DNA of 64,000 nt from contig NZ_AP024452.1 of assembly GCF_016865485.1 (NCBI RefSeq), positions 2,874,501 to 2,938,500 of the forward strand. Reading direction: 5' to 3'. The position numbers and the translations under genes are program-made. Origin of the DNA: Luteitalea sp. TBR-22. Lineage in GTDB: Bacteria > Acidobacteriota > Vicinamibacteria > Vicinamibacterales > Vicinamibacteraceae. This document shows, piece by piece, positions 28,096 to 56,156 of this stretch. Below the pieces are notes generated by a model that saw only the letters and a list, made by a program, of their open reading frames with translations, was not told where the DNA came from and made no database searches. How positions within the stretch are numbered: position 1 is the first letter of the stretch; every line of letters starts with the position of its first letter.

Positions 28096-30381
28096 GTGCA
28101 GATGATGTCGAAGATGACCGCAGGGCTCGGGTGCGTCGTGCTCGTGCTGTCGATGTCCGTGGGGTGTTCCAAGGATCCCGCGGTGGTTCGCCAGCAGTAC
28201 TACGACAGCGCAACCAAGTTGATGGCGGACAAGAAGTACGACGACGCCATCGTCCAGCTGCGGAACGCGCTGAAGGCCGACCCGAAGTTCGGCGAGGCGC
28301 GCCTGAAGCTCGCCGAGGCGTACGCCGAGACCGGGGACACCCGGCGCGCCGTGCAGGAGTACATCCGCGCGGCCGACCTGCTGCCGGGCAATGCCGACGC
28401 CCAGATCAAGGCCGGCAGCGTGATGTTGCTGTCGGGGCGGTTCGAGGAGGCGCGCAGCCGCGCCGAGAAGGCGCTGCAGGCCGACCCCAAGAGCCTCGAC
28501 GCGCGCATCCTGCTCGGCAACGCCATCGCCGGCTCCAAGGACATCGACGGCGCCCTGAAGGAACTCGAGGAGGCGGTCGCGCTGTCGCCGTCGGAGAGCC
28601 GTGGCTACACCGCCCTCGGCGCGGCGCAGTTGGCCAAGGGACAGGCTGACGTCGCCGAAGCGACCTTCCGCAAGGCGGTCGAGGTGCAACCGTCGGCCGT
28701 GCCTGCCCGGCTGGCGCTGGCCAACTTCCTCTGGAGCACCAATCGACGCGACGAGGCCCTGGCGGAACTGCAACAGGCGTCCAGGCTGGAGCCCAACAAC
28801 AAGCTGGTCAATCGCGCCCTGGTGACGTTCAACCTGGCCACCGGCAACGCGGCCGCGGCCGAGCCGTACCTGAAGGCCCTCGCGGCCGACCCGAAGGACG
28901 TCGCCTCGCGCATCGCCCTCGGTGACTACTACCTGCGGCTGAACAAGCTGAAGGAAGCCCGTGAACTCTTGAACGCCCTCGCCAAGGAGAAGGAGGGCTT
29001 CGGCCCGGCGCGGCTGAAGCTGGCCGGCCTGGCGTTTGCCGAGAAGAATCCCACCGAAGCGTACCGCCTCGTCGACGAGGTCCTGAAACAGAGCCCCAAG
29101 TCCGTCGACGCCTTGCTGGTCAAGTCGCGCATGCTGCGTGCCGAGGGCAAGGCCAAGGAAGCCCTCGCGGCGGCGACGGCCGCGACGGCAGCACAACCGG
29201 AGTCGGTGGCGGCCCACTACGAACGGGGTCTGGCCGAACTGGACCTCTCGATGCTCACCGAAGGCGTCAAGAGCCTGCGCGAGGCCGTGCGACTCAATCC
29301 GAAGGCGGCCGCCATCCACCTGCAACTGGCCAATGCGCTGCTCCGGCAGCGCGAGTTCGGCGCGGCGCTGGTGGCGGCCGAGGACGCGCTGCGCAATGCG
29401 CCGCAGGATGCGACGGCGCACCTGATGGTGGCACGCGCCCAGATGGCGGCCGGCGATCTGAAGGCGGCAGCCGCGACGCTGGCGCCGTTGCAGAAGCAGT
29501 TCCCCGACGTCGCCATCGTGTCGAGTCAACTCGGGTCGCTGCGGCTGCTGCAGCGTGACGTCGCCGGGGCGCGGCAGGCGTTCGAGCGCGCGTTGCAGCT
29601 CGAGCCGGGGCAGGTGGACGCCGTGCAGGGCCTGTCGCTCATCGACGTTGCCGAGCGCAAGCCGGAACAGGCCGTCGCCCGCCTGGAAGCCTTGCTGGCC
29701 AAGGACCCCGACAACGTCCGTTACCTGCAGCTCGCGGCGCGTTCCTACATGACGACGCGCAACTTCGACAAGGCCGAGAAGGCCCTGCGACGGGTACTCG
29801 CGCTGGACACCAACAACCTCGAGACGTACGGCCTGCTCGGCCAGCTGTACCTCATGCAGAACAAGGCGGATCAGGCGCTGAAGGAGTACGAGGCACTGAG
29901 CCGGCAGCAGCCCAGCGCGGTCGGGCCGCACACGGTGGTCGCGATGCTGCTGCAGAGCATGAACCGGCTCGACGAGGCGCAGAAGCGATACGAGCGCGTC
30001 ATCGAGATCGATCGCGAGGCGCCGGTGGCAGCCAACAACCTGGCGTGGATGTATGCCGAGGGGCGCGGGAACATCGACGTCGCGCTGCAACTGGCGCAGA
30101 CGGCCAGGCGGCGTCTGCCCAACGAAGCCGCGGTCGCCGACACGCTCGGCTGGATCTACGTCAAGAAGCAGCAGTATCCGCAGGCGGTGCGCGAGCTGAC
30201 CGAGGCGGTGGCCAAGGATCCCGACAATCCCGAGTACCAGTACCACCTCGGCGAGGCGTACAAGGGCAGCGGCGACATCCCGAAGGCGCGGGCGGCGCTG
30301 CAGAAGGCCGTCGCGCGGCCGTTCGCGGCCAGTGATGCGGCTCGAAAGGCTCTGGCGTCCCTTCCGGCGTCCGGCAACTGA
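28096..30381 (+). CDS. prsT: PEP-CTERM/exosortase-type TPR lipoprotein (PrsT-like)
   Basis: A 761-residue lipoprotein: the signal region ends in MSVGC with lipobox cysteine 24. Nearly all the rest is tetratricopeptide repeats, for example KKYDDAIVQLRNALKADPKF, TRRAVQEYIRAADLLPG, and near the end VADTLGWIYVKKQQYPQAVREL. The length and the lone lipobox match the TPR lipoprotein PrsT that sits beside exosortase genes in PEP-CTERM systems. It likely organises export or anchoring of glycan or proteins in the periplasm. The GTG start has an excellent GGAGGAG site. The exosortase gene begins one base after its stop. Confidence 0.87.
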   Translation: MQMMSKMTAGLGCVVLVLSMSVGCSKDPAVVRQQYYDSATKLMADKKYDDAIVQLRNALKADPKFGEARLKLAEAYAETGDTRRAVQEYIRAADLLPGNADAQIKAGSVMLLSGRFEEARSRAEKALQADPKSLDARILLGNAIAGSKDIDGALKELEEAVALSPSESRGYTALGAAQLAKGQADVAEATFRKAVEVQPSAVPARLALANFLWSTNRRDEALAELQQASRLEPNNKLVNRALVTFNLATGNAAAAEPYLKALAADPKDVASRIALGDYYLRLNKLKEARELLNALAKEKEGFGPARLKLAGLAFAEKNPTEAYRLVDEVLKQSPKSVDALLVKSRMLRAEGKAKEALAAATAATAAQPESVAAHYERGLAELDLSMLTEGVKSLREAVRLNPKAAAIHLQLANALLRQREFGAALVAAEDALRNAPQDATAHLMVARAQMAAGDLKAAAATLAPLQKQFPDVAIVSSQLGSLRLLQRDVAGARQAFERALQLEPGQVDAVQGLSLIDVAERKPEQAVARLEALLAKDPDNVRYLQLAARSYMTTRNFDKAEKALRRVLALDTNNLETYGLLGQLYLMQNKADQALKEYEALSRQQPSAVGPHTVVAMLLQSMNRLDEAQKRYERVIEIDREAPVAANNLAWMYAEGRGNIDVALQLAQTARRRLPNEAAVADTLGWIYVKKQQYPQAVRELTEAVAKDPDNPEYQYHLGEAYKGSGDIPKARAALQKAVARPFAASDAARKALASLPASGN

Positions 30382-30382
30382 C

Positions 30383-31261
30383 ATGGCAAGCACGCTGACA
30401 CTCCCGACGACGACCGCGCGGGTGCGTCCGCTGGCCGACGTTCGCCTCTGGCTGGTGCTCGCGGCGCTCGTGGCGTTGTACGCGCCGACCGTGTCGTGGC
30501 TCTGGGAGCGCTGGACGATGAGCGTCTGGCACAACGCGCACGGGATGCTGATCCCGTTCGTGGTCGCGTACTTCGTGCGCGACGAGCTGGAACGCTACGA
30601 CGGGCCGGTCGAGGAGGGCAGCGCCTGGGGCTTTGCCTGGCTCGTGCCGGCGCTGGCCATGCACGTGCTCGATGGCGCCATGCACACGCAACTGCTCTCG
30701 GCAGCCTCGATGGTCGTCGCGGCGCCGGGGTTGTCGTGGCTGTTCCTCGGGCCGTCGCGCTCGCGAGCCATCCTCTTCCCCTTGCTGTTCCTCGCGTTCA
30801 TGCTGCCGATCCCGCTCGGCGTGACCGAACGGCTGCACCTTGCGCTCCGTCACCTCACGGCCGGCGGGGTGGAGCACCTCGTGCCGATGTTCGGCGTGCC
30901 GCTGTTCCGCGACGGGCTCACGCTGCTGAGCGGCGAGTCGCGCCTGCTGGTCGCCGACGCGTGCAGCGGCTTTTCCACCCTCTATGCGGCGATGACGGTG
31001 GCCTTGCTGACGGCGTACTTCTGTCCGGTCGCGTGGCGCCGGGTCCTCGTGGTCGTCGCCGCCGCCCCGATTGCCATCGGCGCCAACATCCTGCGGGTGT
31101 CGCTGTTGGTGCTGCTGGTCAGGACCTACGGCAATGGGGTGCTGGAGACGTGGATGCACGAGGGCTCCGGCATCCTCACCTTCGTCCTCGCGCTGCCCCT
31201 GATCTTCTGGCTGGGGACGCCGCCCCAATCCGTGGCCAAGGAGCCGGCCACGCAGGGGTGA
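30383..31261 (+). CDS. Exosortase/archaeosortase family membrane transpeptidase
   Basis: A 292-residue protein with about eight membrane helices. The catalytic set typical of exosortases is visible: cysteine 194 in VADACSGFSTLYAAM, arginine 238 in GANILRVSLL and histidine 259 in WMHEGSG. Exosortases cut PEP-CTERM-type sorting tails after export and are thought to attach the protein elsewhere in the envelope. The ATG at 30383 lies one base after the prsT-like stop. No PEP-CTERM-tailed protein was recognised in this window, so its targets are elsewhere. The next gene overlaps by four bases. Confidence 0.92.
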   Translation: MASTLTLPTTTARVRPLADVRLWLVLAALVALYAPTVSWLWERWTMSVWHNAHGMLIPFVVAYFVRDELERYDGPVEEGSAWGFAWLVPALAMHVLDGAMHTQLLSAASMVVAAPGLSWLFLGPSRSRAILFPLLFLAFMLPIPLGVTERLHLALRHLTAGGVEHLVPMFGVPLFRDGLTLLSGESRLLVADACSGFSTLYAAMTVALLTAYFCPVAWRRVLVVVAAAPIAIGANILRVSLLVLLVRTYGNGVLETWMHEGSGILTFVLALPLIFWLGTPPQSVAKEPATQG

Positions 31262-31887
31262 CCCGCATGCTCTCGGCGCGGTACGCGACACCGGTCCTCG
31301 TCCTGCTCGCGCTGGCGCTGGTGCCGACGGTGGTCAACTCGTACGTCGGGCGCAAGATCGTCGAGTCGCCGGCGCTGCGTGACGCGCTGCCGGAGGTGCT
31401 CGACGGCACGGCTTCCATGCCGACCGACCGGCGCGCGACGACGATCAAGAAGGAGTTCGACAGCGAGGACTGGGTCGAGCGCGAGTTCGTCGACGCACGT
31501 GGCAGCCGCAGCGTGGTGCTGGCGGTGCGCTCGTACGACATGAAGCGCCTCTATCACCATCCGGAACTCGCGGTGTCGGAGACCGACTACGAACGGGAGT
31601 CGGTGGAGCGGGTGGACGGCAAGCACGGGCCCCTGGACGTGCACGTCCTGCGGTCCGGCGGCGGCAGCACCGTGGCGGCGTACGCCTTGCTCTTCAAGGG
31701 CCGCACGATCGGCAATCCGTACCTCTTCCAGTTGACCAAGGCGCCCGAGTTGCTGCTGCTCGGCCAGCGACCGCTCACGCTGGTGTTCGTCGAGGCGCCG
31801 GCCGGGTCGCGGAGTGAAGGCGTGGCGACGCCGGCGATCTCGCGGCTCGTCTCGGCCGTGACGGCGCTGCAGTCCTCGCCCTCCTGA
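31258..31887 (+). CDS. Exosortase-associated protein of unknown function
   Basis: About 209 residues, starting GTG 31258 in a 4-base overlap with the exosortase stop (ATG 31267 is an alternative). One N-terminal hydrophobic segment (VLVLLALALVPTVVNSYV) serves as signal or anchor. The rest is an extracytoplasmic domain with KEFDSEDWVEREFVD, LAVRSYDMKRLYHHPEL and a C-terminal LTLVFVEAP strand. Position is that of EpsI (DUF3485), but the CLPG and VHxP motifs of EpsI are not present, so it is not assigned to that family. It presumably works with the exosortase. Confidence 0.7.
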   Translation: MTRMLSARYATPVLVLLALALVPTVVNSYVGRKIVESPALRDALPEVLDGTASMPTDRRATTIKKEFDSEDWVEREFVDARGSRSVVLAVRSYDMKRLYHHPELAVSETDYERESVERVDGKHGPLDVHVLRSGGGSTVAAYALLFKGRTIGNPYLFQLTKAPELLLLGQRPLTLVFVEAPAGSRSEGVATPAISRLVSAVTALQSSPS

Positions 31888-31896
31888 CCGGCCCCG

Positions 31897-33237
31897 TCAC
31901 GGCTCGTAGGCGCCCACGGCGTGAGGCCCGCCGGAGGGCCGCGCTCGTCCGGAGCGATCGACGGTGACGGCCTCCCGCGCCGGCGCACGGAGCGCCGGGC
32001 GTGTGGGCACGAGTCGGTAGTCGTCGCGCGATGCGTCGATGAACGCTGTCGCGTCCACGGCGATCATCTCGTCCCCCAAGCCGGACGACGCCGACGACCG
32101 GAGCTGCAGCAGGTTGGCCAACTGCACCTCCGCGTTGGGCGCCTGCACGGCAGCCACCGGCACCTCCACGGCCCGACCGAACGTGGCGTGTTCGACGCGC
32201 AGCAGCGCGATGTCGTCCTCGTGCCGGATGCCGGTGCGCAGGTGGTGGAGCACCGCGTTGCGCACCGTGACGCGGGCGCCGCGATCTCCGGGGCCCCGTA
32301 GCCTGAAGCCGATCGTGCTGTGGTGCACGGTGACGCCGTCGAAGGTCGCATCGACGCGTTCCTTGATGTTGAAGGCGGCCATGTTCGGAATCAGGCCGCC
32401 CTCGAATCCCCAGGCCTCGACGTCCCTCACGTCGAGCTTCGCCCGTCGGCCGTGGCGGATGGTCTTGGTGTCGATGGCGTTCTCGCCCGGCACCACCCCG
32501 GCGGCGAACCCGTTGGCCGGCGCGTCGAGCGGTGCCAGCCAGATGCGTGACGACTCGATCGTCACCTCGGTCCATCCGGGGGCGGTGCGCCCCGGATCGA
32601 GCTGGATGCCGTCGCCGGAGAACGTGTGGATCTCGCTGCGGCGGACGGTGAGGCGCTCCACGGCGCCGGCCACCAGACCATGGGCGTCGGTCCGGCCGTG
32701 ACGGGCATCGAGGCAGTGATGGATCAGGACCTCATCCAACTGCACGTCCGACGGCGCTGCCATGTCGACGCAATCGCGCCCTGCACGCCTGACCTCGACG
32801 CGGCGCATCACGAGATGGGCTGCAGGGTCGGCGACGCGCACCGCGTCGTCCGGTCCGTACTCGCCGTCGAGGACGAGGTTGTCGAGGACAAGGTACGGAT
32901 GCTCGAGCGTGGCAACGCGACCGGGGGCCGTGACGATGGGACGGTGTGCCGGGTCTGCACCGCGTATCACCAGCGGCCGTGTCGGCTCGCCGCCCCGGCG
33001 TGGGCGCAGGGTCTCGTGATACGTGCCGGTCGCGATGACGACCGTGTCGCCCGGCCCGGCAGCGTCGAGCGCCTGAGCGATGGTGCCAAAGGGATGAGTC
33101 GGGTCGCCGGTGCCGGCGGTCGAGGCGGAGACATCGACATGCCAGGCGCGGCCGTCGCGGGCGGCCCGCGCTTCGGGGCCGCAGCCCGTCAGGCACGCGG
33201 CGACCAGGAGGATTGATGCCCGCCCAATGGCGCTCAC
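31897..33237 (-). CDS. Parallel beta-helix lipoprotein (DUF1565-like)
   Basis: A 446-residue lipoprotein: signal LLVAACLTGC with the lipobox cysteine near residue 19. WHVDVSASTAGTGDPTHPFGTIAQALDAAGPGDTV-type sequence (seen as GDPTHPFGTIAQAL and GDTVVIATGTYHE) is the classic opening of right-handed beta-helix proteins such as chondroitinase B and DUF1565 members. Repeated short strands follow, such as LVLDNLVLDGEYG, DGIQLDPG and LRVEHATFG. It ends HAVGAYEP, as in many of these proteins. It may be a lyase or binding protein for an acidic glycan; catalytic residues cannot be named. GTG start at 33237, divergent from the alcohol dehydrogenase gene. Confidence 0.8.
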   Translation of the reverse strand: MSAIGRASILLVAACLTGCGPEARAARDGRAWHVDVSASTAGTGDPTHPFGTIAQALDAAGPGDTVVIATGTYHETLRPRRGGEPTRPLVIRGADPAHRPIVTAPGRVATLEHPYLVLDNLVLDGEYGPDDAVRVADPAAHLVMRRVEVRRAGRDCVDMAAPSDVQLDEVLIHHCLDARHGRTDAHGLVAGAVERLTVRRSEIHTFSGDGIQLDPGRTAPGWTEVTIESSRIWLAPLDAPANGFAAGVVPGENAIDTKTIRHGRRAKLDVRDVEAWGFEGGLIPNMAAFNIKERVDATFDGVTVHHSTIGFRLRGPGDRGARVTVRNAVLHHLRTGIRHEDDIALLRVEHATFGRAVEVPVAAVQAPNAEVQLANLLQLRSSASSGLGDEMIAVDATAFIDASRDDYRLVPTRPALRAPAREAVTVDRSGRARPSGGPHAVGAYEP

Positions 33238-33348: not shown

Positions 33349-34467
33349 ATGCCGTTCGCGTTCCCAACATTCAGGCACCCACCGCTGGTCACCCATGGCA
33401 CCGGCGCCATCAAGTCGCTGGCTGGTGGCGACAGGTGGCCCGACACGGTGTTGTTCGTCTCGGGTGCCGCCCCGGTGCACGCGTATCTGGGCCAGGCATG
33501 GGCCAAGGCCGGACCGGCCCTCGATTCGATCCGGACGGTCATCAAGCCTGCCGGGGAACCCTCCTGGGAGATGTGTCTGGCAGCGGCGGACGTCCTCCGC
33601 AACGCCCGTCCGCGTCGGATTGTCGCAGTGGGTGGGGGAGCCGTCCTGGACGGAGCGCGGCTGGCCTGGCTCATCGCCGTCGACGCGCTGGACGCCAACG
33701 GGCGGCTCACCGAGCAGTGGCAGGAGCGTCGTCGCCACCTCGAACTCGTCCTGGTGCCGACCACGTGTGGGTCCGGCGCCGAAGCGGCGACGATCGCCGT
33801 GCTCTCCCTGGACGGACGCAAGGTGCCGGTCGTCTCGCCCGCCCTGTTGGCCGACGAGGTCGTCCTCGACAGCCGCTTCCTGTCGAGCGTTGACGAGTTC
33901 ACGCTCGCGTGCTCGCTGGCCGATGCCCTGTCACATGCGTTCGAGGCGTGGATGTCCATCGTGCCTGGGCGGCTGGCCAAGGAAGCGGCGATCTCCTGTC
34001 TCCGTCTCATCCTCTCCGACGGCCAGGCGTACGACCGTCACGCACGCCTGATGGATGCCGGCTTCCTGGGCGGCCTGGCGGCCGCCCATTGCTCGGTCGG
34101 CCTGGTGCACGCGTTCGCGCACTCGATCGCGCGATTCGGCGTCGGACACGGCCACGCCAATGCGGTCGCGCTGCTGCCCGGACTCCGGAGGATGCTGGCA
34201 AGGCCCAACGCCCCGGAGTTGCTGGCGGCGATCGGCATGACGCCAGACGGCCTGCTGTCACGGGTCAGCGACCTGATTCGGCCGGCGCTCCAGCGAGAAC
34301 TGCCGTCGCCTGCCGCCGCGGTGCTCGCCGATGCGCGCGATCGGCAGCAACTGGGCGAGGTCATCGTCGCCGACCCGTGCATGCGCACCTCCGCGGTGAC
34401 CGCCGAAGACCTGGACATGGAGGCGTGGCTCGGCGAGATTCGCGACCGCGCTCCGGCCCAGTGTTGA
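33349..34467 (+). CDS. Iron-containing alcohol dehydrogenase family protein
   Basis: A 372-residue group III alcohol dehydrogenase-like enzyme that would reduce an aldehyde with NAD(P)H. The N-terminal half binds the nucleotide (VAVGGGAVLDGARLAW and the LVPTTCGSGAEAATIA loop). The metal site is intact: D192 and H196 in ADALSHAFEAW, a histidine in GLVHAFAHSIARF, and H267 in GVGHGHANAVALL. It opens a cluster that also holds AMP ligase, LuxE-like, LuxC-like, ACP and SDR genes, so its likely substrate is an aldehyde produced by the LuxC-like reductase (inference). Confidence 0.87.
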   Translation: MPFAFPTFRHPPLVTHGTGAIKSLAGGDRWPDTVLFVSGAAPVHAYLGQAWAKAGPALDSIRTVIKPAGEPSWEMCLAAADVLRNARPRRIVAVGGGAVLDGARLAWLIAVDALDANGRLTEQWQERRRHLELVLVPTTCGSGAEAATIAVLSLDGRKVPVVSPALLADEVVLDSRFLSSVDEFTLACSLADALSHAFEAWMSIVPGRLAKEAAISCLRLILSDGQAYDRHARLMDAGFLGGLAAAHCSVGLVHAFAHSIARFGVGHGHANAVALLPGLRRMLARPNAPELLAAIGMTPDGLLSRVSDLIRPALQRELPSPAAAVLADARDRQQLGEVIVADPCMRTSAVTAEDLDMEAWLGEIRDRAPAQC

Positions 34468-35897
34468 ACGTCTGGCTTCTGGACCGACTCGAGTACGTCG
34501 ACCCGGCGCGGCTCGCGCTCGAAGACGACGATGTGAGTTGGACGTACGGACAACTGAAGGACCGCGCGCGCACGGCCGGCGGTGTCCTGGTCCGGCAATA
34601 CGGACCCGGGCGATACATCGTGATCCCGATGCGGCCCGGGGCGCCCTCGGTGGCGCTCCTGCTCGGGGTCATGTACGCCGGCTGCACGCCCGTGCCGGTG
34701 GATCCCGAACTGCCACCGGCGGCGCTGCAGTACATCGTCGAGAAGAGCGGGGCGGTGGGCATCGTCGATCCTGCCCGCCCGGACCTGTGGGAGGACGGCC
34801 CCTCGGTCGACCTGGCCGGCCGCAGCGACATGCCTGCCCTGGTCCTGTTCACGTCAGGCACGACCGGACACCCGAAGGGCGTCGTGGTGTCGCACGCGAA
34901 TCTCGAGCACTCCTGCAGCGCGATCAGCGAGTACCTCGACTACCCGCAGTGGAACTCCGCGGCCGTGGTGCTACCGCTGCACTACAGCTACGGCCTGGTG
35001 TCGCAGGTCCTCTGCCAGCTCTCGGTCGGGGGGCGGGTCGTCGTCTTCCCGACCATGCGCAATCCCGTGAAGGTGGCGCGGCGAGTGGAGTCGCTCGGTC
35101 TGGCCTCGTTCTGCGGCGTGCCCTCGACATTCCATGCGTTGGGCACGATCCACGGGATGACGCCGATCGCGATGCCGTCGGTGCGGGTGGTGTGCTCGGC
35201 TGGCGCCGCGCTGGATCGGACGCGGCTCGGGGTGATGCGTGACATCTTCCCGTCGGCGGTGATCTTCAACAACTACGGGATGACCGAGGCGGCCCCCCGG
35301 ATTGCCTACATTCGCGACGACGATCCGCGCTTCGGGGAAGCGACCTGCGGCAAGCCGATGCGGGGTGTGGAGGTGCGGGTGGTCGATCCCGCGACCTGGC
35401 AGCCCCTGCCGGACGGCGAGGCGGGCATGTTGGTCGTGCGCGGCCCGAATGTCACCGCCGGCTACCTGAACGATCCCGAGTTGACGGCTGCCGCCTTCAC
35501 GCCGGACGGGTTCCTGATCTCGGGCGACATGGCGGCGCTGCGTGACGGCTACATCTACATCAGCGGCCGGTACGACGACGTGTTCAACGTGGGCGGGGAG
35601 AAGGTGTCGCCGCTCGAAGTCGAGCACGCGGTCGCCCAGCATCCTGCGGTCGAGCAGGTGGTCGTGCGCGGGGTTGCCGACGCGCAGCGGGGGGCGGTCC
35701 CGGTGGCCTTCGTCCGCCTGCGCGCGCCGGTGACGCGCCGGGAACTGATGGCATCGGCGAGGGAGCACGTGACCCCGATCCGCATCCCGACGCGGTTCCT
35801 GGAGGTCCGCGGATTCCCGATGACGTCGAACGGTAAAGTGCAGCGGCGGCTGCTCACTGCCGATGATCCGGAGTGGGTCATCAGGGAGATCGAGTGA
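34461..35897 (+). CDS. AMP-dependent acyl ligase
   Basis: A 478-residue adenylate-forming enzyme. Core motifs: LVLFTSGTTGHPKG (A3), FNNYGMTEAAPRIAY (A5), YISGRYDDVFNVGGEKVSP (A8) and NGKVQRRLL with the catalytic A10 lysine. It would activate a carboxylic acid to the acyl-adenylate and load it on CoA or on the ACP encoded three genes downstream. It is somewhat short, lacking an extended N-terminus, and resembles the exosortase-A-associated ligases only in general. The GTG at 34461 overlaps the dehydrogenase stop by seven bases; TTG 34464 would overlap by four. Confidence 0.88.
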   Translation: MLNVWLLDRLEYVDPARLALEDDDVSWTYGQLKDRARTAGGVLVRQYGPGRYIVIPMRPGAPSVALLLGVMYAGCTPVPVDPELPPAALQYIVEKSGAVGIVDPARPDLWEDGPSVDLAGRSDMPALVLFTSGTTGHPKGVVVSHANLEHSCSAISEYLDYPQWNSAAVVLPLHYSYGLVSQVLCQLSVGGRVVVFPTMRNPVKVARRVESLGLASFCGVPSTFHALGTIHGMTPIAMPSVRVVCSAGAALDRTRLGVMRDIFPSAVIFNNYGMTEAAPRIAYIRDDDPRFGEATCGKPMRGVEVRVVDPATWQPLPDGEAGMLVVRGPNVTAGYLNDPELTAAAFTPDGFLISGDMAALRDGYIYISGRYDDVFNVGGEKVSPLEVEHAVAQHPAVEQVVVRGVADAQRGAVPVAFVRLRAPVTRRELMASAREHVTPIRIPTRFLEVRGFPMTSNGKVQRRLLTADDPEWVIREIE

Positions 35898-36982
35898 TGT
35901 TTCTGTCGAACGTGCCGCCGTACGGCCTCGCGCCGGCCGAGAAGGCGGCGTACCTCGTGCCGCGGCTCACGGAACTGGTCTCGCACCACGAGCAGCAGTG
36001 CGCACCGTATCGACTGCTCGTGGGAGACTGGCGGCGGCACATGCACGACGAGGTGACCTCGGTCGAGCAGCTGCCGTTCCTGCCCGTCACCGCCTTCAAG
36101 GAGTACGACCTGCAGTCGGCGGCCTCGGCCGTGTCGGTGCGTTCGTCGTCGACGACCGGCCAGCAGCCGTCGCGGATCTTCATGGACAAGGTCACGCGCG
36201 GCCGGACCTCGTTGTCGGCGCGGGCGATCCTGGCCGACTTCATCGGCGAGGGCGCCAGGCCGTACCTGGTGTTCGACGCCGAGGAGGCCGTGCGAGGCGG
36301 GGCGCTCAGCGCGCGGGCGGCGGCCGTCCTGAGCCTGGCGCATTTCGCCGAGACCTTCCATTTCGTGATGCGTCTGGAGGGCGGCCAGCCGGTGCTCGAC
36401 CCGGAGGCACTCGCGCGTGCCCTGGAGGCGATCGGCGACCGTCCGTTCGTCGGCTACGGCTTCACCTACCTGCTGTACCAGGCCCACGCGGCGATTGCGG
36501 CGGCAGGCGGCGGTCGGTCCATGCACGCCGACAGCGTGCTGCTGCACAGTGGTGGCTGGAAGCGGCTGACCAGCGAGGCCGTGTCGCGCGAGGCGTTCGA
36601 TGCCACGGTTTCGGGCGTCTGGCAGCTCGAACCGCACCGGGTGATCGACTTCTACGGGCTGGTGGAACAGGTGGGCGTGCCCTATCCCGACTGCCGTGCG
36701 GGACTGAAGCACGTCCCCTACTGGGCTGACGTGGTCGTCCGCCGCGCCGATACGCTGGACCCGGCCGGCGTGGGGGAGACCGGGTTGCTGCAACTGGTGA
36801 ACTGCCTGCCGCTCGGCGCGCCCAACCACAGCGTGCTGACCGAGGACCTGGGTGAGATCGTGTTGGAGGACGGGTGCGCATGCGGGCGGCGAGGCCGGGC
36901 GTTCGCGTTCCGCGGGCGGGCCCCGCGCGCCGAGGTCCGGGGCTGCAGCGACACGATGACGCCCCGCCGGGATGTCGCATGA
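35897..36982 (+). CDS. LuxE-family acyl-protein synthetase
   Basis: A 361-residue member of the LuxE (PF04443) family, ATP-dependent enzymes that activate fatty acids and, in luminous bacteria, pass acyl groups to LuxC. Seen: LPFLPVTAFKEYDL, the nucleotide-loop-like SSSTTGQQPSRI at about 83-94, LLHSGGWK and VIDFYGLVEQVGVPYPDC, and a C-terminal cysteine-containing tail (EDGCACGRRG, then RGCSD) where LuxE carries its acyl-accepting cysteine. The usual SSGTTG is SSSTTG here. The ATG shares one base with the previous stop. The next gene overlaps by four bases and encodes the LuxC homologue. Confidence 0.85.
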   Translation: MFLSNVPPYGLAPAEKAAYLVPRLTELVSHHEQQCAPYRLLVGDWRRHMHDEVTSVEQLPFLPVTAFKEYDLQSAASAVSVRSSSTTGQQPSRIFMDKVTRGRTSLSARAILADFIGEGARPYLVFDAEEAVRGGALSARAAAVLSLAHFAETFHFVMRLEGGQPVLDPEALARALEAIGDRPFVGYGFTYLLYQAHAAIAAAGGGRSMHADSVLLHSGGWKRLTSEAVSREAFDATVSGVWQLEPHRVIDFYGLVEQVGVPYPDCRAGLKHVPYWADVVVRRADTLDPAGVGETGLLQLVNCLPLGAPNHSVLTEDLGEIVLEDGCACGRRGRAFAFRGRAPRAEVRGCSDTMTPRRDVA

Positions 36983-38223
36983 GCGTCGTGCAGCAGGGCG
37001 CCGCGGCGCAGATCCGTGAATGGACGCAGGCGCTCGGTCCCAGTCGAGCGAGCAGTGCCGATCGGCGCGAGGCGCTGAACCAGCTGTCGGACGATCTGCT
37101 CGTGAACCGGGCAGGCATCCCGCCGGCGCTGGCCGCGGCAGGCGTCGCGTTCCTTGCCACGTTCCTCCGCCACTCGTCCATCGAGGCGGCGCTGGCCCGT
37201 GAGTTGCCCTCGGCCGAGGCCCTCGACCGGTTCGTGCCGGTGGGCGGGCGCAAGAGCATCCGGATTCTTCCGCGCGGTACCGTCGCGCAGTGGATTGCGG
37301 GCAACGTGCCGCTGCTGGCGATGTTCTCGTGGGCCCTGGCGTCGGTGACCGGCAACCGCAGCATCCTCCGCCTGAGTACGCGGCAGGACGACTTCGTCAC
37401 CCCGTTGCTGGCCAGGCTCGCCGCCCTGTCGGAGGCCGGCGCCGAGATGGCGCGCGAGACGCTGGTGGTGAGCTTCGAGCGCGAGGACCTCGAGGCGCAC
37501 GTCGCCATGAGCCGCGCCGCCGACGTGCGCGTGGCGTGGGGCGGCCTCGAGGCGGTCGAGGCCATCCGCGATCTGCCGGCCCGCTGGGAGACGGAGACCA
37601 TCGTCCTGGGCCCTCGCGTCAGCCTGGCGGTGGTCGATCCGCGGGAGGTCACCGATCGATTGCTGACACGCCTGGCGATCGACGTCATCTACTTCGATCA
37701 GCTGGCGTGCTCGTCGCCCCAATGGCTGTTCGTGAGGGGCACGAGGGCCGAGGCGGAGCACTTCACCGAGCGGCTCGCCGTCGAGTTCGACAAGCAGACC
37801 CGGGCCATCCCGAGACACGTGCTCGATTACGGCGAGACCTACCGCATCCACCTGGATCGCACGCGGGTCCTGCTCGACGGCGGCACGCTGTTCCGCGACG
37901 AGCAGACGCGTTGGACCGTGTCGGTCGTCGATCGACCGCAGGACCTGGTCACGTGCGCGAACCGGTTCCTGCAGGTGATGCCGTTCGACGACTTCGCGCA
38001 GGTCCACGCGCTCATCCCGGAGAACGTGCAGACGGCCGTCACGCTGCTCGGCCCCGAGGACACCGAGACGTTCACCGAGGGCGCCGCGCGGCGCGGCGTC
38101 TGTCGCTTCCCCCGCCCTGGCGAGGGAAGCCATTTCGAAACGCCGTGGGATGGCATCCCGCTGGTATCGCGACTCACGCGCTGGGTGCTGCGCACCGACG
38201 CGCACGCAAGAGGAGAGCAATGA
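36979..38223 (+). CDS. LuxC-family acyl-CoA/acyl-protein reductase
   Basis: A 414-residue aldehyde-dehydrogenase-fold reductase like LuxC, which reduces acyl thioesters to aldehydes with NADPH. Seen: RILPRGTVAQWIAGNVPLLAMFSW-type sequence (block PRGTVAQWIAGNVP), TGNRSILRLS, VRVAWGGLEAVEAIR and the active-site region FDQLACSSPQWLFV with cysteine 244. The length fits LuxC (about 450-480 residues in Vibrio, shorter in polysaccharide loci). ATG 36979 overlaps the LuxE stop by four bases and the stop overlaps the ACP start by four, so LuxE, LuxC and ACP are translationally linked. Luciferase genes are absent. Confidence 0.87.
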   Translation: MSVVQQGAAAQIREWTQALGPSRASSADRREALNQLSDDLLVNRAGIPPALAAAGVAFLATFLRHSSIEAALARELPSAEALDRFVPVGGRKSIRILPRGTVAQWIAGNVPLLAMFSWALASVTGNRSILRLSTRQDDFVTPLLARLAALSEAGAEMARETLVVSFEREDLEAHVAMSRAADVRVAWGGLEAVEAIRDLPARWETETIVLGPRVSLAVVDPREVTDRLLTRLAIDVIYFDQLACSSPQWLFVRGTRAEAEHFTERLAVEFDKQTRAIPRHVLDYGETYRIHLDRTRVLLDGGTLFRDEQTRWTVSVVDRPQDLVTCANRFLQVMPFDDFAQVHALIPENVQTAVTLLGPEDTETFTEGAARRGVCRFPRPGEGSHFETPWDGIPLVSRLTRWVLRTDAHARGEQ

Positions 38224-38468
38224 CCGACACCGACGTGTCCACGAAGTTGAAGCAGCTGATCGCCCACCTGTTCAAGGTGTCGGTGGACGAACTGTCCGAC
38301 GAGGTCGGCCCGGGCGACGTGTCCGGCTGGGACTCGCTCGGCCACGTGACGCTGATGGTGGAGATCCAGAAGCAGTTCGGCACGCACATCCCGGTCGAGG
38401 ACGCGATCGAGGTCGAGTCGATCGCCGACATCGTCAGGCTGCTCGAGCGCGAGGGGTCTGCTGCGTGA
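38220..38468 (+). CDS. Acyl carrier protein
   Basis: An 82-residue acidic four-helix carrier. Serine 39 in GWDSLGHVTLM is the 4'-phosphopantetheine site. The start has AGGAGAG upstream and overlaps the luxC-like stop by four bases; the SDR gene overlaps its end by four. It probably carries the acid activated by the AMP ligase or LuxE-like protein, for reduction by the LuxC-like protein. Confidence 0.93.
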   Translation: MTDTDVSTKLKQLIAHLFKVSVDELSDEVGPGDVSGWDSLGHVTLMVEIQKQFGTHIPVEDAIEVESIADIVRLLEREGSAA

Positions 38469-39220
38469 AGATTGCCGGGACGATCGCGGTCGTCACGGGC
38501 GGCGCGTCGGGCATCGGCAAGGCCTTCGCGCAGCGCCTGCTCGCGAGGGGCGCCACCGTGTGGATCCTCGATCGCGACCAGGCGGCGCTGGCGCAGGCCG
38601 TTGCCGAACTGCAGCCCGACGGCGACCTGCGGCACATCCGCTGTGACGTGGGCGACGAGGCGGCCGTCGTGCAGGCAGTGCGCGAGATCGACGAGCAATC
38701 CGGCGGCGTGGACATCCTGGTCAACAACGCGGCCGTGCTCCGCGATCAGGCGCTGGTGTCGCGCCTGGGGCGGCACATACGACAGCACTCGACCGCCGAC
38801 TGGCACGAGACGCTGCACAGCAACCTCACGAGCGTGTTCCTCATGAGCCGGCAGGTCGGCGAGAGCATGTTGCGCCGCCGGCGCGGGGGACTCATCGTGA
38901 ACATCTCGTCGATCTCGCGCCTCGGTAACGCGGGGCAGACGGCCTACGCGGCCAGCAAGGCGGCCGTCGCAGCCATGACCGTCACCTGGTCGCAGGAACT
39001 GGCTCCCTACGGCATCCGGGTCGTGGGCATCGCGCCGGGGTTCGTGGAGACGCCGATGACCCGCGCCATCCCCCCGCTGTTCCTCGAGCAGTTGCGGGAG
39101 CGCACGCCGCAGAAGCGGTTCGGCACGCTGGAGGAGTTCAAGGAGACGCTCGAGTTCGTGATCGTCAACGATTACCTGAACGGCAAGATCCTCGAGGTCG
39201 ATGGTGGACTCCGTTTCTGA
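38465..39220 (+). CDS. Short-chain dehydrogenase/reductase (FabG-like)
   Basis: A 251-residue classical SDR. The nucleotide loop is TGGASGIGKA (11-20), NNAA at 87-90, catalytic serine in NISSISR (148-149), tyrosine 161 and lysine 165 in TAYAASKAA, and PGFVETPMTR after it. The most likely role is reduction of a 3-oxoacyl-ACP or a small ketone or aldehyde in the same pathway. GTG 38465 overlaps the ACP stop by four bases. A long insertion between NNAA and the catalytic serine (SRLGRHIRQHSTADWHE) is typical of FabG-like enzymes in surface-glycan loci. Confidence 0.9.
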   Translation: MKIAGTIAVVTGGASGIGKAFAQRLLARGATVWILDRDQAALAQAVAELQPDGDLRHIRCDVGDEAAVVQAVREIDEQSGGVDILVNNAAVLRDQALVSRLGRHIRQHSTADWHETLHSNLTSVFLMSRQVGESMLRRRRGGLIVNISSISRLGNAGQTAYAASKAAVAAMTVTWSQELAPYGIRVVGIAPGFVETPMTRAIPPLFLEQLRERTPQKRFGTLEEFKETLEFVIVNDYLNGKILEVDGGLRF

Positions 39221-40304
39221 GCCCACTGCGACCCCGCGCCCGCGCGGGCTGATCGGCTACGCGCCGGAGCTGATCGACGAGATTGTCGCGCTGCAATACG
39301 AGATGTTCCCGCAGCGCGAGTGGGGCCTCATCGAGCCCCGCTGGCGATGGATGTTCGAGGAGTCGGCGCGGCGCGTCGGCGTTGCGCCGATGGTGTGGGT
39401 GTACCGCGCGTCCAGCGGGGTCGTCGCGCACCACGGCGCGATCGCGGTCCGGTGCAAGGTCGGTGACCAGACGCTCACCACCGGCTGGTTCGTCGAGACG
39501 ATGGTGCACGAGAAGTACCGGGGCCGCGCCGTGGGGCCGATGCTGGTGAAGAAGGCGCTCGAGGACGTGCCCTTCAATCTGTCGCTGGGACAGACGACGC
39601 AGATGCGCGAGATGCAGTTCGCCCTCGGCTGGGTCGAGGTCGCGCCGCTCCCGCTGGCCGCGCTCGCCGTACGCGGAGCGAGGGTCCTGACGGGCAAGGG
39701 CCACCCGGCCACGCGTCCGCTCGCGTCGCTGGTCCTGGACGCGCGTCGTCGCCTGGGGATGTTGCGCGGTGGAACGCTGCGCGGCGTGGACGTGGTCCGT
39801 GATGGCGCCTTTGGAGCCGAGCACGACGCGTTGTGGGAGCGAGTGGCGGCGGCGGTGCCGGTGGCGGTCGTCCGCGACGCCTCCTTCCTGACATGGAAGT
39901 ACCGCAGCCAGCCCGGCCAGCGATCGGTGACGTTCGACGTGCGACAGGGCGCGCGGCTGCTCGGGACGGTGGCGTACGTCGTGCGCGAGCCCGACAGCGC
40001 GTACCGCTACCGCCGCGCGGTGGTCACCGACATCCTCGTCCCGCCGAGCGAGCCGGCGTCGGTCCGGGCGTGCGTCCGGGCGTTGCACGACGTGGCGCGC
40101 GAGGACGGCGTCGACCTGGTGTCGGTCGGCCTGCGCCAGCCGGTGATCGAGGCGGAGTTGCGGCGGCAGGGCTATCTCACGCGCCCGCCGCAGAGAGTGT
40201 TCCTGGTGGCCGGGCCCGAGGGACATCCGGTGCGCCAGTGGCTGGACGCGCCCGACGCGTGGTTCCTGAGCACCAGCGACTCGGACATCGACCGCCCATG
40301 GTAG
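39201..40304 (+). CDS. Double GNAT-domain acyltransferase
   Basis: A 367-residue protein with two GNAT-like halves. The first (about 20-140) has the acyl-CoA binding motif A: FVETMVHEKYRGRAVGPMLV. The second (about 190-350) has VVRDASFLTWKYRSQPG, a strand-rich middle and AREDGVDLVSVGLRQP, with RQGYLTRPPQRVFLV at its end, as in the Mig-14 or FemX-like GNAT groups. It overlaps the SDR stop by 20 bases. In this context it may transfer an acyl or aminoacyl group to a sugar amine. The donor could be acyl-ACP made by the upstream genes; this is inference. Confidence 0.75.
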   Translation: MVDSVSEPTATPRPRGLIGYAPELIDEIVALQYEMFPQREWGLIEPRWRWMFEESARRVGVAPMVWVYRASSGVVAHHGAIAVRCKVGDQTLTTGWFVETMVHEKYRGRAVGPMLVKKALEDVPFNLSLGQTTQMREMQFALGWVEVAPLPLAALAVRGARVLTGKGHPATRPLASLVLDARRRLGMLRGGTLRGVDVVRDGAFGAEHDALWERVAAAVPVAVVRDASFLTWKYRSQPGQRSVTFDVRQGARLLGTVAYVVREPDSAYRYRRAVVTDILVPPSEPASVRACVRALHDVAREDGVDLVSVGLRQPVIEAELRRQGYLTRPPQRVFLVAGPEGHPVRQWLDAPDAWFLSTSDSDIDRPW

Positions 40305-41689
40305 CCGCGCCCATGGACCAGCGAGTGGCGCGGGCGGGGACACCGGCCGGCGGCCGCGGTGTCCTGATCGTCACGACGAACTTCCCCCCCGATCGACGCG
40401 CGGGCACTCACCGCCTCCTGCGCTTCGCGCGGAACCTCGACGCACTCGGCTGGCGCGTCGTGGTCCTCACGATGGATCCGCGGTCGTATCGCCCCGGAGT
40501 GCCCGTGGACGACCGCCTGCTGCGGGAGATCCCCGCATCGGTCGTGGTGGGACGCACGCGCGTGCCGTGGCGCGCCGAGGCGCCTCCCGCGCCGTCCGCA
40601 GGCACGGCGGCGGGCGCCCCGACCACCGCGCCGGCGAGGGCGTCTCGGCCGCGCGGGAGGGTCGAGCGCACCATCCGCAAGTTCTGGCAGGACCTGACCA
40701 CCACGCCCGACCCGGAGCTGGCCTGGTGGCTGCCCACGGTGCCTGAGGGCGCGGCGCTCGCTCGGGCACACCGCCTCGACGTGATCCTGTCGTCGGCGCC
40801 GCCGTTCACCCCGCACCTGGCGGCTGCGGAGATCGCGCGGCGCACGAAGCTGCCCTGGGTCGCCGACTTCCGGGACCCGTGGTCACGCGCGCCATGGGTG
40901 CTCGACCAGCGCACCCGCGGGTGGACCGGGTGGGTCCACCAGCGGCTCGAGCGCATGACCATCGGCCGCGCGTCGCGCGTGGTGCTCAACACGCGGCCCA
41001 TGCAACAGGACTTCATGGCGCACTATCCGCCGGCCATGGCGTCCAAGTTCCTCACGATTCCGAACGGCTTCGACAGCGAGGCCCTCGAGCGTGGGCTGCG
41101 GCCCGTGGCGCGGACGGCTCCGGCCTCGACGCTGGTCCTGTGCCACACCGGCAATCTGTACCAGGCGCGCGATCCCCGGCCGTTGTTGCGGGCCCTGGCC
41201 ACGGTGCTGACCGACGGCTCGATGCCCGCCGATGCCTTCCGCCTGCAGTTGGTCGGCGGCGCCGGCGGCGAGTTCGATACGGCCAACGAGGTGGCGCGGC
41301 TCGGCATCGCGCACGCCGTGGAGTTCGTGCCGCCCGTGTCGCACGGCGAGAGCCTCGGATACCTCCGGGCCGCCGACGTCCTGCTCGTCGTGCAGCCCGA
41401 CACGGCCGTGCAGGTGCCGGTGAAGCTTTACGAGTATCTGTGGGCCCGCAAGCCGATTCTCGCGATGGCCTCAGCCGGCGCCGTCGCCGACCTCGTCACC
41501 GACGGGAAGGTCGGCATCGTCGTCGCCGCCGACGACGATCGCGCGATTGCGGAGGCGCTCCGCGAATTCCAGCGTCGCCGCGCGACGCTGGGGGCCGACT
41601 ACGTGGCGCCGGCTGCCTTCCTGGAGCAGCTCGAGGGCACGACGTTGACCCGACGGTTGCACGACGTGCTGATGGACCTCACCGCATGA
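40298..41689 (+). CDS. Family 4 glycosyltransferase
   Basis: A 463-residue GT-B enzyme. The N-terminal domain begins VLIVTTNFPPDRRAGTHRLLRFARNL-type sequence (block TTNFPPDRRAGTHR), then a low-complexity Ala/Pro/Thr linker (about 85-110), then WVADFRDPWSR, RVVLNTRPMQQDF and FLTIPNGFD. The donor domain has LCHTGNLYQARDPRPLLRAL and PVKLYEYLWARKPILAMASAG with the conserved E of the GT4 EX7E-like region. ATG 40298 overlaps the GNAT stop; ATG 40313 is an alternative. The inserted linker is unusual for the family. Confidence 0.87.
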   Translation: MVAAPMDQRVARAGTPAGGRGVLIVTTNFPPDRRAGTHRLLRFARNLDALGWRVVVLTMDPRSYRPGVPVDDRLLREIPASVVVGRTRVPWRAEAPPAPSAGTAAGAPTTAPARASRPRGRVERTIRKFWQDLTTTPDPELAWWLPTVPEGAALARAHRLDVILSSAPPFTPHLAAAEIARRTKLPWVADFRDPWSRAPWVLDQRTRGWTGWVHQRLERMTIGRASRVVLNTRPMQQDFMAHYPPAMASKFLTIPNGFDSEALERGLRPVARTAPASTLVLCHTGNLYQARDPRPLLRALATVLTDGSMPADAFRLQLVGGAGGEFDTANEVARLGIAHAVEFVPPVSHGESLGYLRAADVLLVVQPDTAVQVPVKLYEYLWARKPILAMASAGAVADLVTDGKVGIVVAADDDRAIAEALREFQRRRATLGADYVAPAAFLEQLEGTTLTRRLHDVLMDLTA

Positions 41690-46058: not shown

Positions 46059-46907
46059 ATGGCCGCCAACCCGTCTCCGGGCCCTTGGCGCAGGGCGACC
46101 GCATCCCTGCGCGTGCTGCCGGACTTCGTGATCATCGGGACACAGAAGGGCGGTACGAGTTCCCTGTACCAGTACCTGGCCATGCACCCCGATGTCCTGC
46201 CGGCGTTCAAGAAGGAAGTGCACTACTTCGGCTGGGAGTATGCCCGCGGCCCACGCTGGTATCGAGCGCATTTCCCGCTGGCGTGGGCGCGCGACGCGCA
46301 CGCGCGACGGTTGGGCACTCCGGCGGTGACGGGCGAGGCGACGCCGTACTACCTGTTCCATCCACACGTGCCCGGCCGCATGCATGCGCTGGTGCCCGAG
46401 GCGAGGGTGCTGGTGCTGCTGCGTGATCCCGTGAGCCGGGCGTTGTCGTCCTATCGTCACCAGGTGCGGCAGGGACGCGAGACGCGTCCGCTCCTGCAGG
46501 CGATGACCGAAGAGCACGCGACGCTGGCGGGCGAGGTGGCGCGCCTCGAGGCCGACCCGTTGTACAAGGGCGAGGCGCACCGGCACTTCTCCTACGTCTC
46601 GCGCGGCTTCTACGCCGACCAACTGGAGCGCTGGTTTGCCGTCTACCCGCGGGAGCAGATTCTGGTGCTGCGCAGCGAGGACTTCTTTCGCGAGACGGCG
46701 TCGGTGTACGCCCGGGTCGTCGAGTTCCTCGGGCTGCGGCCCTGGGCGCCGTCGGCGTTCACTCCGTACAATGTGGCGCGCAGCCAGGCACTGCGCGTCG
46801 AGCCCGACGAAGCGGCGACACGGGCCTGGCTTGCCGCGACGTACGCGCCGCACAACGTGCGGCTGGAGTCGATGCTGGAGCGCAATCTCGGGTGGACGGC
46901 ACCGTGA
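46059..46907 (+). CDS. Carbohydrate sulfotransferase (heparan-sulfate sulfotransferase type)
   Basis: A 282-residue PAPS-dependent sulfotransferase. The 5'-phosphosulfate loop is IIGTQKGGTSSLYQYL at about residues 25-40. The 3'-phosphate site is in VLLRDPVSRALSSYRHQVRQG. KKEVHYFGWEY and EATPYYLF are the substrate-side blocks of this family. It would sulfate a hydroxyl or amine of the locus glycan, using PAPS from a pathway whose first gene (cysD) lies at the window's end. The stretch 46000-46058 before it contains only a 19-codon open frame. The next gene overlaps by four bases. Confidence 0.9.
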   Translation: MAANPSPGPWRRATASLRVLPDFVIIGTQKGGTSSLYQYLAMHPDVLPAFKKEVHYFGWEYARGPRWYRAHFPLAWARDAHARRLGTPAVTGEATPYYLFHPHVPGRMHALVPEARVLVLLRDPVSRALSSYRHQVRQGRETRPLLQAMTEEHATLAGEVARLEADPLYKGEAHRHFSYVSRGFYADQLERWFAVYPREQILVLRSEDFFRETASVYARVVEFLGLRPWAPSAFTPYNVARSQALRVEPDEAATRAWLAATYAPHNVRLESMLERNLGWTAP

Positions 46908-56107: not shown

Positions 56108-56156
56108 GAAGTCGATGGGCCGGGCCACGGGCGCGCGCGCACGTCAGCGCTGCGAC

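What the first reader, a model, noticed from the sequence alone, without database searches (positions are those of the whole stretch)
33349..40304. LuxC/LuxE-like acyl reduction module embedded in a surface-glycan locus
Seven tightly overlapping genes encode iron-containing alcohol dehydrogenase, AMP ligase, LuxE-like synthetase, LuxC-like reductase, ACP, SDR and a double-GNAT protein. LuxE and LuxC make fatty aldehydes in luminous bacteria, but luciferase and LuxD are absent. The simplest reading is that an acid is activated, loaded on ACP, reduced by LuxC to an aldehyde and then to an alcohol by the Fe-dehydrogenase, for use as a glycan substituent or glycolipid tail. The GNAT protein may transfer the acyl group. 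The order LuxE-LuxC-ACP is held together by 4-base overlaps. The genes are followed directly by glycosyltransferases.
Basis: partly seen in the sequence, partly recalled or inferred. Interest (0 to 1): 0.85.

Follow-up and report, generated by a model that had tools for sequence, protein, structure and literature searches.

The report
Acid-reducing cassette in exopolysaccharide locus
A plant-associated bacterium carries a seven-gene cassette, shared with a few unrelated bacteria, that probably reduces an organic acid with relatives of two light-organ enzymes and attaches the product to its surface sugar coat, much as the cholera bacterium is thought to decorate its own surface sugar.

Summary
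Seven co-directional, overlapping genes (33349-40304) encode Fe-ADH, AMP ligase, LuxE, LuxC, ACP, a FabG-like SDR and a tandem-GNAT protein, between an exosortase block and glycosyltransferases in Luteitalea sp. TBR-22. Catalytic residues are intact. The exact seven-gene order recurs in an acidobacterial MAG, a Rheinheimera MAG and a planctomycete MAG; a Woeseiaceae MAG has six of seven. All four genomes hold an exosortase. Six other genomes of the family gave no LuxC match, and two same-genus genomes have the exosortase block without the cassette: a sporadic, probably laterally moved cassette.

In Vibrio cholerae O1, ACP, AMP ligase and a LuxE-domain protein are assigned to the tetronate substituent, and the ligase is reported to act on the finished hydroxy acid. 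I therefore prefer two separate activations: LuxE-LuxC-FeADH reduce a carboxylate to an alcohol; AMP ligase-ACP then load the hydroxy acid (SDR perhaps tailoring it) and the GNAT protein transfers it to the glycan. Substrate, product and acceptor are unknown. ACP/SDR/AMP ligase/LuxE/LuxC sets are already described in flagellin-glycosylation islands, so this is a new variant of a known kind.

The parts
33349..34467 (+). Iron-containing alcohol dehydrogenase
   Evidence: PF00465 1.3e-21 and PF25137 4.7e-10; D192, H196, H254, H267 (metal-ligand positions, named from recall) invariant in 5 of 5 cassette homologues, window included; start 33349 fits the alignment
34461..35897 (+). AMP-forming acyl ligase (adenylation enzyme)
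   Evidence: PF00501 3.1e-67 and PF13193 2.7e-15; 48-58% identical in four cassette relatives; not the XrtA ligase TIGR03098 (187 of 592 bits)
35894..36982 (+). LuxE-like acyl-protein synthetase (start GTG 35894 or ATG 35897)
   Evidence: PF04443 8.9e-43; profile A1 matches LuxE of 7xc6 at 7.8e-45 with the C-terminal Cys aligned; that Cys invariant in 10 of 10 and 9 of 9
36979..38223 (+). LuxC-like acyl-thioester reductase
   Evidence: PF05893 7.6e-64; matches LuxC of 7xc6 at 3e-17, ACSSP aligned with ACFST; C244 invariant in 9 of 9 and 8 of 8; the only PF05893 match in the genome at E 0.001
38220..38468 (+). Acyl carrier protein with GWDSLGHV phosphopantetheine motif
   Evidence: PF00550 7.1e-9; 58-74% identical in four cassette relatives; motif read
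38465..39220 (+). Short-chain dehydrogenase, 3-oxoacyl-ACP reductase (FabG)-like
   Evidence: PF00106 1.8e-54; best NCBIfam PRK08217, 265.6 of 298 bits, below cut-off; S148/S149, Y161, K165 invariant in 5 of 5
39201..40304 (+). Tandem-GNAT protein, predicted acyltransferase
   Evidence: PF13527 3.9e-5; 41-47% identical in three cassette relatives; Eis- and NMT-like fold
40298..41689 (+). GT4 glycosyltransferase overlapping the cassette
   Evidence: PF13692 1.7e-12
28096..30381 (+). PrsT, XrtA/PEP-CTERM TPR lipoprotein (upstream flank)
   Evidence: TIGR02917 366.6 bits over cut-off 312.2
30383..31261 (+). Exosortase (upstream flank)
   Evidence: PF09721 1.4e-56; TIGR02602 134.6 bits over cut-off 105.55; best subtypes XrtA and XrtW, both below their cut-offs
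31258..31887 (+). EpsI-like protein (upstream flank)
   Evidence: PF11984 8.5e-8
31897..33237 (-). Unnamed protein between the exosortase block and the cassette; a homologue lies upstream of the cassette in L052 too
   Evidence: 47% identical in L052, 64% in L141; no Pfam match at 0.001

Best explanation
The seven genes are a horizontally transferable cassette that makes an acyl substituent carrying a reduced (hydroxylated) end and installs it on an exosortase-linked exopolysaccharide. Likely steps: (1) LuxE adenylates a free carboxylic acid, probably a short hydroxy- or dicarboxylic acid, takes the acyl group on its C-terminal Cys and passes it to LuxC Cys244; (2) LuxC reduces the thioester with NADPH to an aldehyde; (3) the Fe-alcohol dehydrogenase reduces the aldehyde to an alcohol; (4) the AMP ligase activates the other carboxylate and loads the hydroxy acid on the dedicated ACP; (5) the FabG-like SDR may tailor the ACP-bound acyl group; (6) the tandem-GNAT protein transfers it to an amine or hydroxyl of the glycan. 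Shown here: gene set, order, intact catalytic residues, conservation, locus context. Inferred: every reaction, the order of steps 1-4, substrate, product and acceptor.
For: Exact gene order FeADH-AMPlig-LuxE-LuxC-ACP-SDR-GNAT in 3 of 80 LuxE loci (L052, L053, L055) and 6 of 7 genes in L054. AMP ligase and LuxC each accompany LuxE in 72 of 80 loci, so the core is a unit. FeADH-bearing loci cluster on the LuxE tree: nine rows form one clade (100/98), each with FeADH beside LuxE; the label (11 of 81 rows) needs 3 changes, against a mean of 10.5 and a minimum of 8 in 200 shuffles. Thus FeADH is tied to the LuxE partner, as aldehyde -> alcohol predicts. LuxC and LuxE cysteines align with those of the solved luminous pair. 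V. cholerae O1 precedent: RfbL is reported to activate 2,4-dihydroxybutanoic acid onto CoA or RfbK; RfbN has a LuxE domain; in-frame deletion of the AMP ligase gene wbeL abolishes O1 antigen, whose amino groups carry tetronate. Different acyltransferase types flank related modules: tandem GNAT (window, L052, L053, L055), PF13480 GNAT (L054), PF13302 GNAT (L056) and hexapeptide transferase (L057), as expected if the module supplies an acyl donor. L056 also has NeuB and a cytidylyltransferase nearby. Locus: exosortase, PrsT, EpsI, glycosyltransferases, flippase; 4 of 4 other cassette genomes have an exosortase.
Against: No amino-sugar aminotransferase (PF01041, E 1e-20) lies in the window; the nearest is about 350 kb away, so an N-acylated amino sugar is not evident. 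The RfbKLMNO sequences were not held, so kinship with V. cholerae was not tested by sequence, and its pathway is itself called putative. FeADH is detected in only 11 of 80 LuxE loci, so alcohol formation by FeADH is not general; in two Asgard archaeal loci it lies outside the main clade, and L189, a strong match to the FeADH-linked LuxE profile (5.7e-103), shows no FeADH. On the tree the window row has an odd letter make-up and L057 a long branch. The exosortases of the cassette genomes are not shown to lie in the same locus: for G400 and G401 they are on other contigs than the cassette. The SDR has no firm role. Distant GNAT homologues of the order sit near yqeY and murJ (10 of 14 loci), with a DegT aminotransferase in only 5 of 14, which says little about acceptor. 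The reverse (oxidative) direction is not excluded.
Confidence: 0.5

Rival explanations
1. One reading: the AMP ligase loads an acid on ACP, LuxE/LuxC take it from ACP and reduce it to an aldehyde, and FeADH makes an alcohol used as a glycan substituent or glycolipid tail.
For: Same genes; LuxC and ACP genes are adjacent and overlap by 4 nt; authors of the Aeromonas and enterobacterial papers also suggest a liposugar component.
Against: LuxE becomes redundant; the V. cholerae ligase is reported to act on the finished hydroxy acid; LuxE/LuxC are far below long-chain-specific cut-offs; an alcohol product gives the acyltransferase nothing to transfer.
Confidence: 0.2
2. The LuxE-LuxC product is an aldehyde that is itself the building block (for example for reductive N-alkylation or condensation), FeADH and SDR being side or detoxifying steps.
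For: 69 of 80 LuxE loci show no FeADH by this search, so the aldehyde may be the general product.
Against: In this clade FeADH is inherited with LuxE; the cassette itself holds no aminotransferase and none is near.
Confidence: 0.12
3. The cassette serves something other than the EPS (a secreted small molecule or lipid) and sits in the glycan locus by chance.
For: Substrate and acceptor unknown; ACP + AMP ligase + SDR also occur in secondary metabolism (recalled); exosortases of two of the four other cassette genomes lie on another contig.
Against: 4 of 4 other cassette genomes carry an exosortase, and glycosyltransferases or XrtA-type genes flank the cassette in L052-L055; the cassette overlaps a GT gene by 7 nt in the window.
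Confidence: 0.12

Closest known systems
Vibrio cholerae O1 tetronate genes (rfb/wbe, VC0248-VC0252; RfbK ACP, RfbL AMP ligase, RfbN with LuxE domain)
   Same: Carrier protein, AMP ligase and LuxE-domain protein in a surface-polysaccharide locus, assigned to a hydroxy-acyl substituent. An alcohol dehydrogenase (RfbM) and acyltransferase (RfbO) are recalled, not read in a call.
   Different: Here LuxE and LuxC are separate genes, an SDR and a tandem GNAT are added, the host locus is exosortase EPS, and no aminotransferase is near. No sequence comparison was possible.
Aeromonas group II polar-flagellin glycosylation islands
   Same: ACP, 3-oxoacyl-ACP reductase, AMP synthetase, LuxE, LuxC, with a glycosyltransferase downstream of luxC.
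   Different: No FeADH or tandem GNAT in the passages read; pseudaminic acid genes there, no such aminotransferase here; LuxC, not the GNAT gene, is followed by the glycosyltransferase there.
Enterobacterial flagellin glycosylation islands
   Same: Acp, LuxE, LuxC, CaiC (AMP ligase), FabG sets in many strains.
   Different: Flagellin glycan, not EPS; no FeADH in the passages read.
Luminous-bacteria fatty acid reductase LuxC-LuxE (PDB 7xc6)
   Same: Families, catalytic cysteines, adjacent genes.
   Different: No LuxD among the seven genes; far below the equivalog cut-offs; ACP, AMP ligase, FeADH, SDR, GNAT added.
XrtA/PEP-CTERM exopolysaccharide loci
   Same: Exosortase, PrsT, EpsI, GTs; 32 PEP-CTERM matches in the genome.
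   Different: The LuxE/LuxC cassette is absent between EpsI and the next gene in the 2 same-genus loci that could be read across.

Membership tests
LuxC-LuxE fatty acid reductase superfamily (PF05893, PF04443) | Profile match and conserved nucleophilic Cys in both proteins | tested here: met
Luminous lux fatty acid reductase (NCBIfam LuxE/LuxC equivalogs) | Score over the curated cut-offs | tested here: not met
   LuxE 44.6 of 550 bits, LuxC 88.7 of 750 bits
Luminous lux fatty acid reductase (NCBIfam LuxE/LuxC equivalogs) | luxD in the operon | tested here: not met
   One weak partial PF02273 match 3.1 Mb away; none of the seven genes matches it
Luminous lux fatty acid reductase (NCBIfam LuxE/LuxC equivalogs) | Luciferase genes luxA/luxB | not tested
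   No search made; none of the seven genes matches a luciferase family
V. cholerae O1-type tetronate module (RfbKLMNO) | ACP + AMP ligase + LuxE-domain protein (+ alcohol dehydrogenase, recalled) in a surface-polysaccharide locus | tested here: met
   literature
V. cholerae O1-type tetronate module (RfbKLMNO) | Sequence kinship with RfbK/L/M/N/O | not testable with these tools
V. cholerae O1-type tetronate module (RfbKLMNO) | Amino-sugar acceptor made at the same locus | tested here: not met
   No PF01041 aminotransferase in the window; nearest about 350 kb away
Aeromonas group II flagellin glycosylation island | ACP, SDR, AMP synthetase, LuxE, LuxC, downstream GT | tested here: met
   (as a set; the order differs)
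Aeromonas group II flagellin glycosylation island | Pseudaminic acid (pse) genes | tested here: not met
   No PseC-type aminotransferase in the window; the other pse genes were not profiled
XrtA/PEP-CTERM exopolysaccharide locus | Exosortase, PrsT and PEP-CTERM substrates | tested here: met
   Exosortase and PrsT over cut-off; 32 PEP-CTERM matches in the genome; the XrtA subtype is below its own cut-off (148 of 208 bits)
Eis-like tandem GNAT | Two GNAT domains in one chain, full-length structural match | tested here: met
   Z 16-17 over 281-296 residues, model pLDDT 74 from 4 sequences; Foldseek ranks N-myristoyltransferases first; no sequence match in PDB at E 0.1

The most novel reading that the evidence does not exclude
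An undescribed cross-phylum cassette joins a two-enzyme free-acid reductase of the Lux type, an Fe-alcohol dehydrogenase and a tandem-GNAT acyltransferase to exosortase-linked exopolysaccharide, giving a hydroxy-acyl decorated (and, from the neighbouring sulfotransferases, perhaps sulfated) polysaccharide. The FeADH-linked LuxE clade would then be a genomic marker for short hydroxy-acyl glycan substituents outside luminous bacteria, from Acidobacteriota to Planctomycetota and Paenibacillus.
Probability: 0.35. Interest if true: 0.62.

Novelty: new variant of a known kind. Interest (0 to 1): 0.47.

Why it matters
LuxE and LuxC are best known from luminescence, yet alone found at least 497 coding relatives of this LuxE in genome records, and 72 of the 80 kept loci have an AMP ligase beside it. 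If the reading is right, many 'lux' reductases serve surface-sugar decoration, and gene content (FeADH or not, which acyltransferase) would help to predict the substituent. It would give a testable function for a module that the two flagellin papers (passages) describe only as fatty acid synthesis genes, and a handle on the chemistry of exosortase-linked EPS in Acidobacteriota.

Tried and rejected
Glycolipid or fatty-alcohol tail: not excluded, but long-chain-specific models fail by a wide margin.

GNAT as proof of an amino-sugar acceptor: looked promising when one distant homologue (L164) lay downstream of a nucleotide-sugar epimerase and a DegT aminotransferase, but over 14 loci only 5 have DegT, while 10 have yqeY and murJ within about 6 kb. 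I do not use it.

Yersinia ruckeri O1 legionaminic acid cluster as a second worked precedent (recalled 4-hydroxybutyryl group): the passages of PMC6028603 and PMC5552943 that I saw name no LuxE, LuxC or ACP in that cluster. Dropped.

Exosortase with LuxE/LuxC in print: 174 papers held two of five terms; 10 listed and seen by title and start of abstract; lux genes with O-antigen, flagellin or glycan; 20 of 25 and 2 of 2 listed. Among the listed papers only the two flagellin papers bear on lux genes in glycan loci; one search also lists the 2006 PEP-CTERM paper, which I did not open (its counts there: no LuxE, no LuxC). This is no full literature search; only open PMC text is held.

Plasmids as vehicle: the LuxE protein search gave 34 plasmid records, all under 60% identity, best listed 36%, so no evidence of plasmid carriage.

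Counting caveats: one search uses tblastn with the window's own proteins, so diverged partners are missed (for example L111's LuxC, found later as an ORF and aligned). L186 gives the same identities and scores, gene by gene, as L053 and was not counted as independent; L190 is the contig of L052. L107's FeADH lies about 4 kb downstream and was left out of the first label count; with it the tree needs 4 changes. The 80 loci are the best of 497, not a random sample. Not every window gene was profiled.


Full report
What is there. The window is bases 2,874,501-2,938,500 of a 6,468,984-base single-contig genome. That length equals the published chromosome of Luteitalea sp. TBR-22, an acidobacterium isolated from duckweed (PMC8852301, abstract in a listing and two passages). 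An AlphaFold model of the GNAT protein from four sequences (mean pLDDT 74) matches tandem-GNAT proteins over nearly its whole length: Eis-type acetyltransferases and N-myristoyltransferases. A shared fold does not give its substrate.

Is it working? LuxC Cys244 lies in ACSSP, aligned with the ACFST of the solved luminous LuxC (7xc6), and is invariant in 9 of 9 aligned LuxC proteins of the phylum and 8 of 8 in the FeADH-linked set. The LuxE Cys near the C-terminus aligns with that of 7xc6 LuxE and is invariant in 10 of 10 and 9 of 9. That these are the acylated residues is recalled. FeADH keeps the four positions that bind metal in this family (recalled) in 5 of 5, and the SDR keeps its Ser-Tyr-Lys residues in 5 of 5.

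Is it conserved together? Of these 80, 72 have an AMP ligase and 72 a LuxC near LuxE on the same strand, 44 an SDR, 37 an ACP, 11 an FeADH and 3 the GNAT (lower bounds). The exact order FeADH-AMPlig-LuxE-LuxC-ACP-SDR-GNAT is found in L052 (Acidobacteria MAG), L053 (Rheinheimera tuosuensis MAG) and L055 (Planctomycetota MAG); L054 (Woeseiaceae MAG) has the first six, with a different, PF13480-type GNAT gene just upstream. On an 81-row LuxE tree the window and these four form one supported group (99/96), inside a nine-row group (100/98) in which every locus has FeADH beside LuxE. FeADH presence needs 3 changes on the tree, against 8 or more in each of 200 shuffles. Four other acidobacterial LuxE rows fall elsewhere in the tree. 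Cautions: the window row has an odd letter make-up and L057 a long branch. In the order of Rheinheimera, 6 of 296 genomes match the FeADH-type LuxE profile: two are L053's and L054's own genomes, G511 carries what looks like the L053 cassette again, two (L187, L188) show AMPlig-ACP-FeADH-LuxE, and one (L189) shows SDR-ACP-AMPlig-LuxE-LuxC without FeADH.

How did it come here? LuxE is found in 33 of 396 genomes of the phylum, own included. LuxC is found in 1 of 7 genomes of the family, the own one. The FeADH-type LuxE is found in 2 of 193 genomes of the class: the own one and the source of L052. In two same-genus genomes (G125, G396) the PrsT-exosortase-EpsI block runs directly into the homologue of window gene 41686-43668, with no cassette between. 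A third (G362) has EpsI and the 31897-33237 gene, but its contig ends 1.5 kb further on, with no cassette match. Lateral gain (or repeated loss) is the natural reading; the direction is not proved.

Where does it sit? Upstream are PrsT and an exosortase (both over general cut-offs) and EpsI; the genome holds 32 PEP-CTERM matches. Downstream are glycosyltransferases, a sulfatase-family protein and a flippase. All 4 other cassette genomes have an exosortase (E 2.4e-72 to 2.9e-49), against 0 of 2 for L056 and L057, a weak match for L111's genome (1.8e-8), and 1 of 14 control genomes, an archaeon. For L053's and L054's genomes the exosortase is on another contig than the cassette, so a common locus is not shown. 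Neighbours in these loci resemble XrtA-system genes: the extra ligase in L054 is over its TIGR03098 cut-off and L055 has a PEP-CTERM protein over cut-off, while the amidotransferases of L052 and L053 and the glycosyltransferases of L053 and L055 score below theirs.

What does it do? The most useful precedent is the V. [quoted passage not shown] RfbL, an AMP ligase, is reported to activate 2,4-dihydroxybutanoic acid and attach it to CoA or to the carrier RfbK (PMC12208996, passages); RfbN contains a LuxE domain (PMC4772473, passages). The original pathway paper (Morona 1995) was seen only as a reference. That RfbM is an alcohol dehydrogenase, RfbO an acyltransferase and RfbN also LuxC-like is recalled. 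By this analogy LuxE/LuxC/FeADH make the hydroxy acid and the ligase/ACP pair activates it afterwards. The acyltransferase beside related modules differs from locus to locus: tandem GNAT, PF13480 GNAT (L054), PF13302 GNAT (L056), hexapeptide transferase (L057). That fits a module that supplies an acyl donor. In L056 (Paenibacillus mellifer) it lies beside NeuB and cytidylyltransferase genes, which points to a nonulosonic acid locus.

Against this reading: the window has no aminotransferase for an amino sugar, and the nearest is about 350 kb away, so the acceptor may be a hydroxyl or a deacetylated hexosamine (two polysaccharide deacetylases lie in the window). The SDR is unexplained. Substrate chain length rests only on failure of long-chain-specific models. 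FeADH is missing from most LuxE loci.

Known or new? ACP, 3-oxoacyl-ACP reductase, AMP synthetase, LuxE and LuxC with a glycosyltransferase are described in group II flagellin glycosylation islands of 98 Aeromonas strains (97 of them with the conserved glycosyltransferase; PMC7874193, passages) and similar sets in many Enterobacteriaceae (PMC4875605, passages). So the core is known, with no proven chemistry in the passages read. The FeADH + tandem-GNAT cassette in exosortase loci appeared in none of the papers listed. I rate it a new variant of a known kind.

Noticed in passing
window 46059-46907, 49681-50583 (+); 53176-54171, 54253-55203, 55184-56128 (-); 63389-64000 (+): Five sulfotransferase-family genes plus a PAPS_reduct-domain (CysD-like) gene at the right edge; an APS kinase gene also lies upstream of the cassette in L052. 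Suggests a sulfated exopolysaccharide.
   Followed up: partly
L036, L037, L040 (acidobacterial loci): LuxC lies in longer open frames (551 aa, cut by the locus end; 857 and 883 aa) beside a separate LuxE; L037 shows a second weak LuxE-like match in that frame, suggesting a LuxC-LuxE fusion.
   Followed up: no
L082 and L116: Two Asgard archaeal MAG contigs carry FeADH-LuxE-LuxC with an AMP ligase and ACP-like match nearby.
   Followed up: partly
L056 10098-10853: A 251-aa gene without Pfam match sits between LuxE and LuxC in Paenibacillus mellifer.
   Followed up: no
L164-L177: Distant homologues of the tandem GNAT lie within about 6 kb of yqeY and murJ in 10 of 14 loci of related Acidobacteriota, a possible cell-wall role.
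   Followed up: partly
window 22763-23608 (-) and 57107-58195 (+): Two polysaccharide deacetylases, possible makers of free amines for N-acylation.
   Followed up: no
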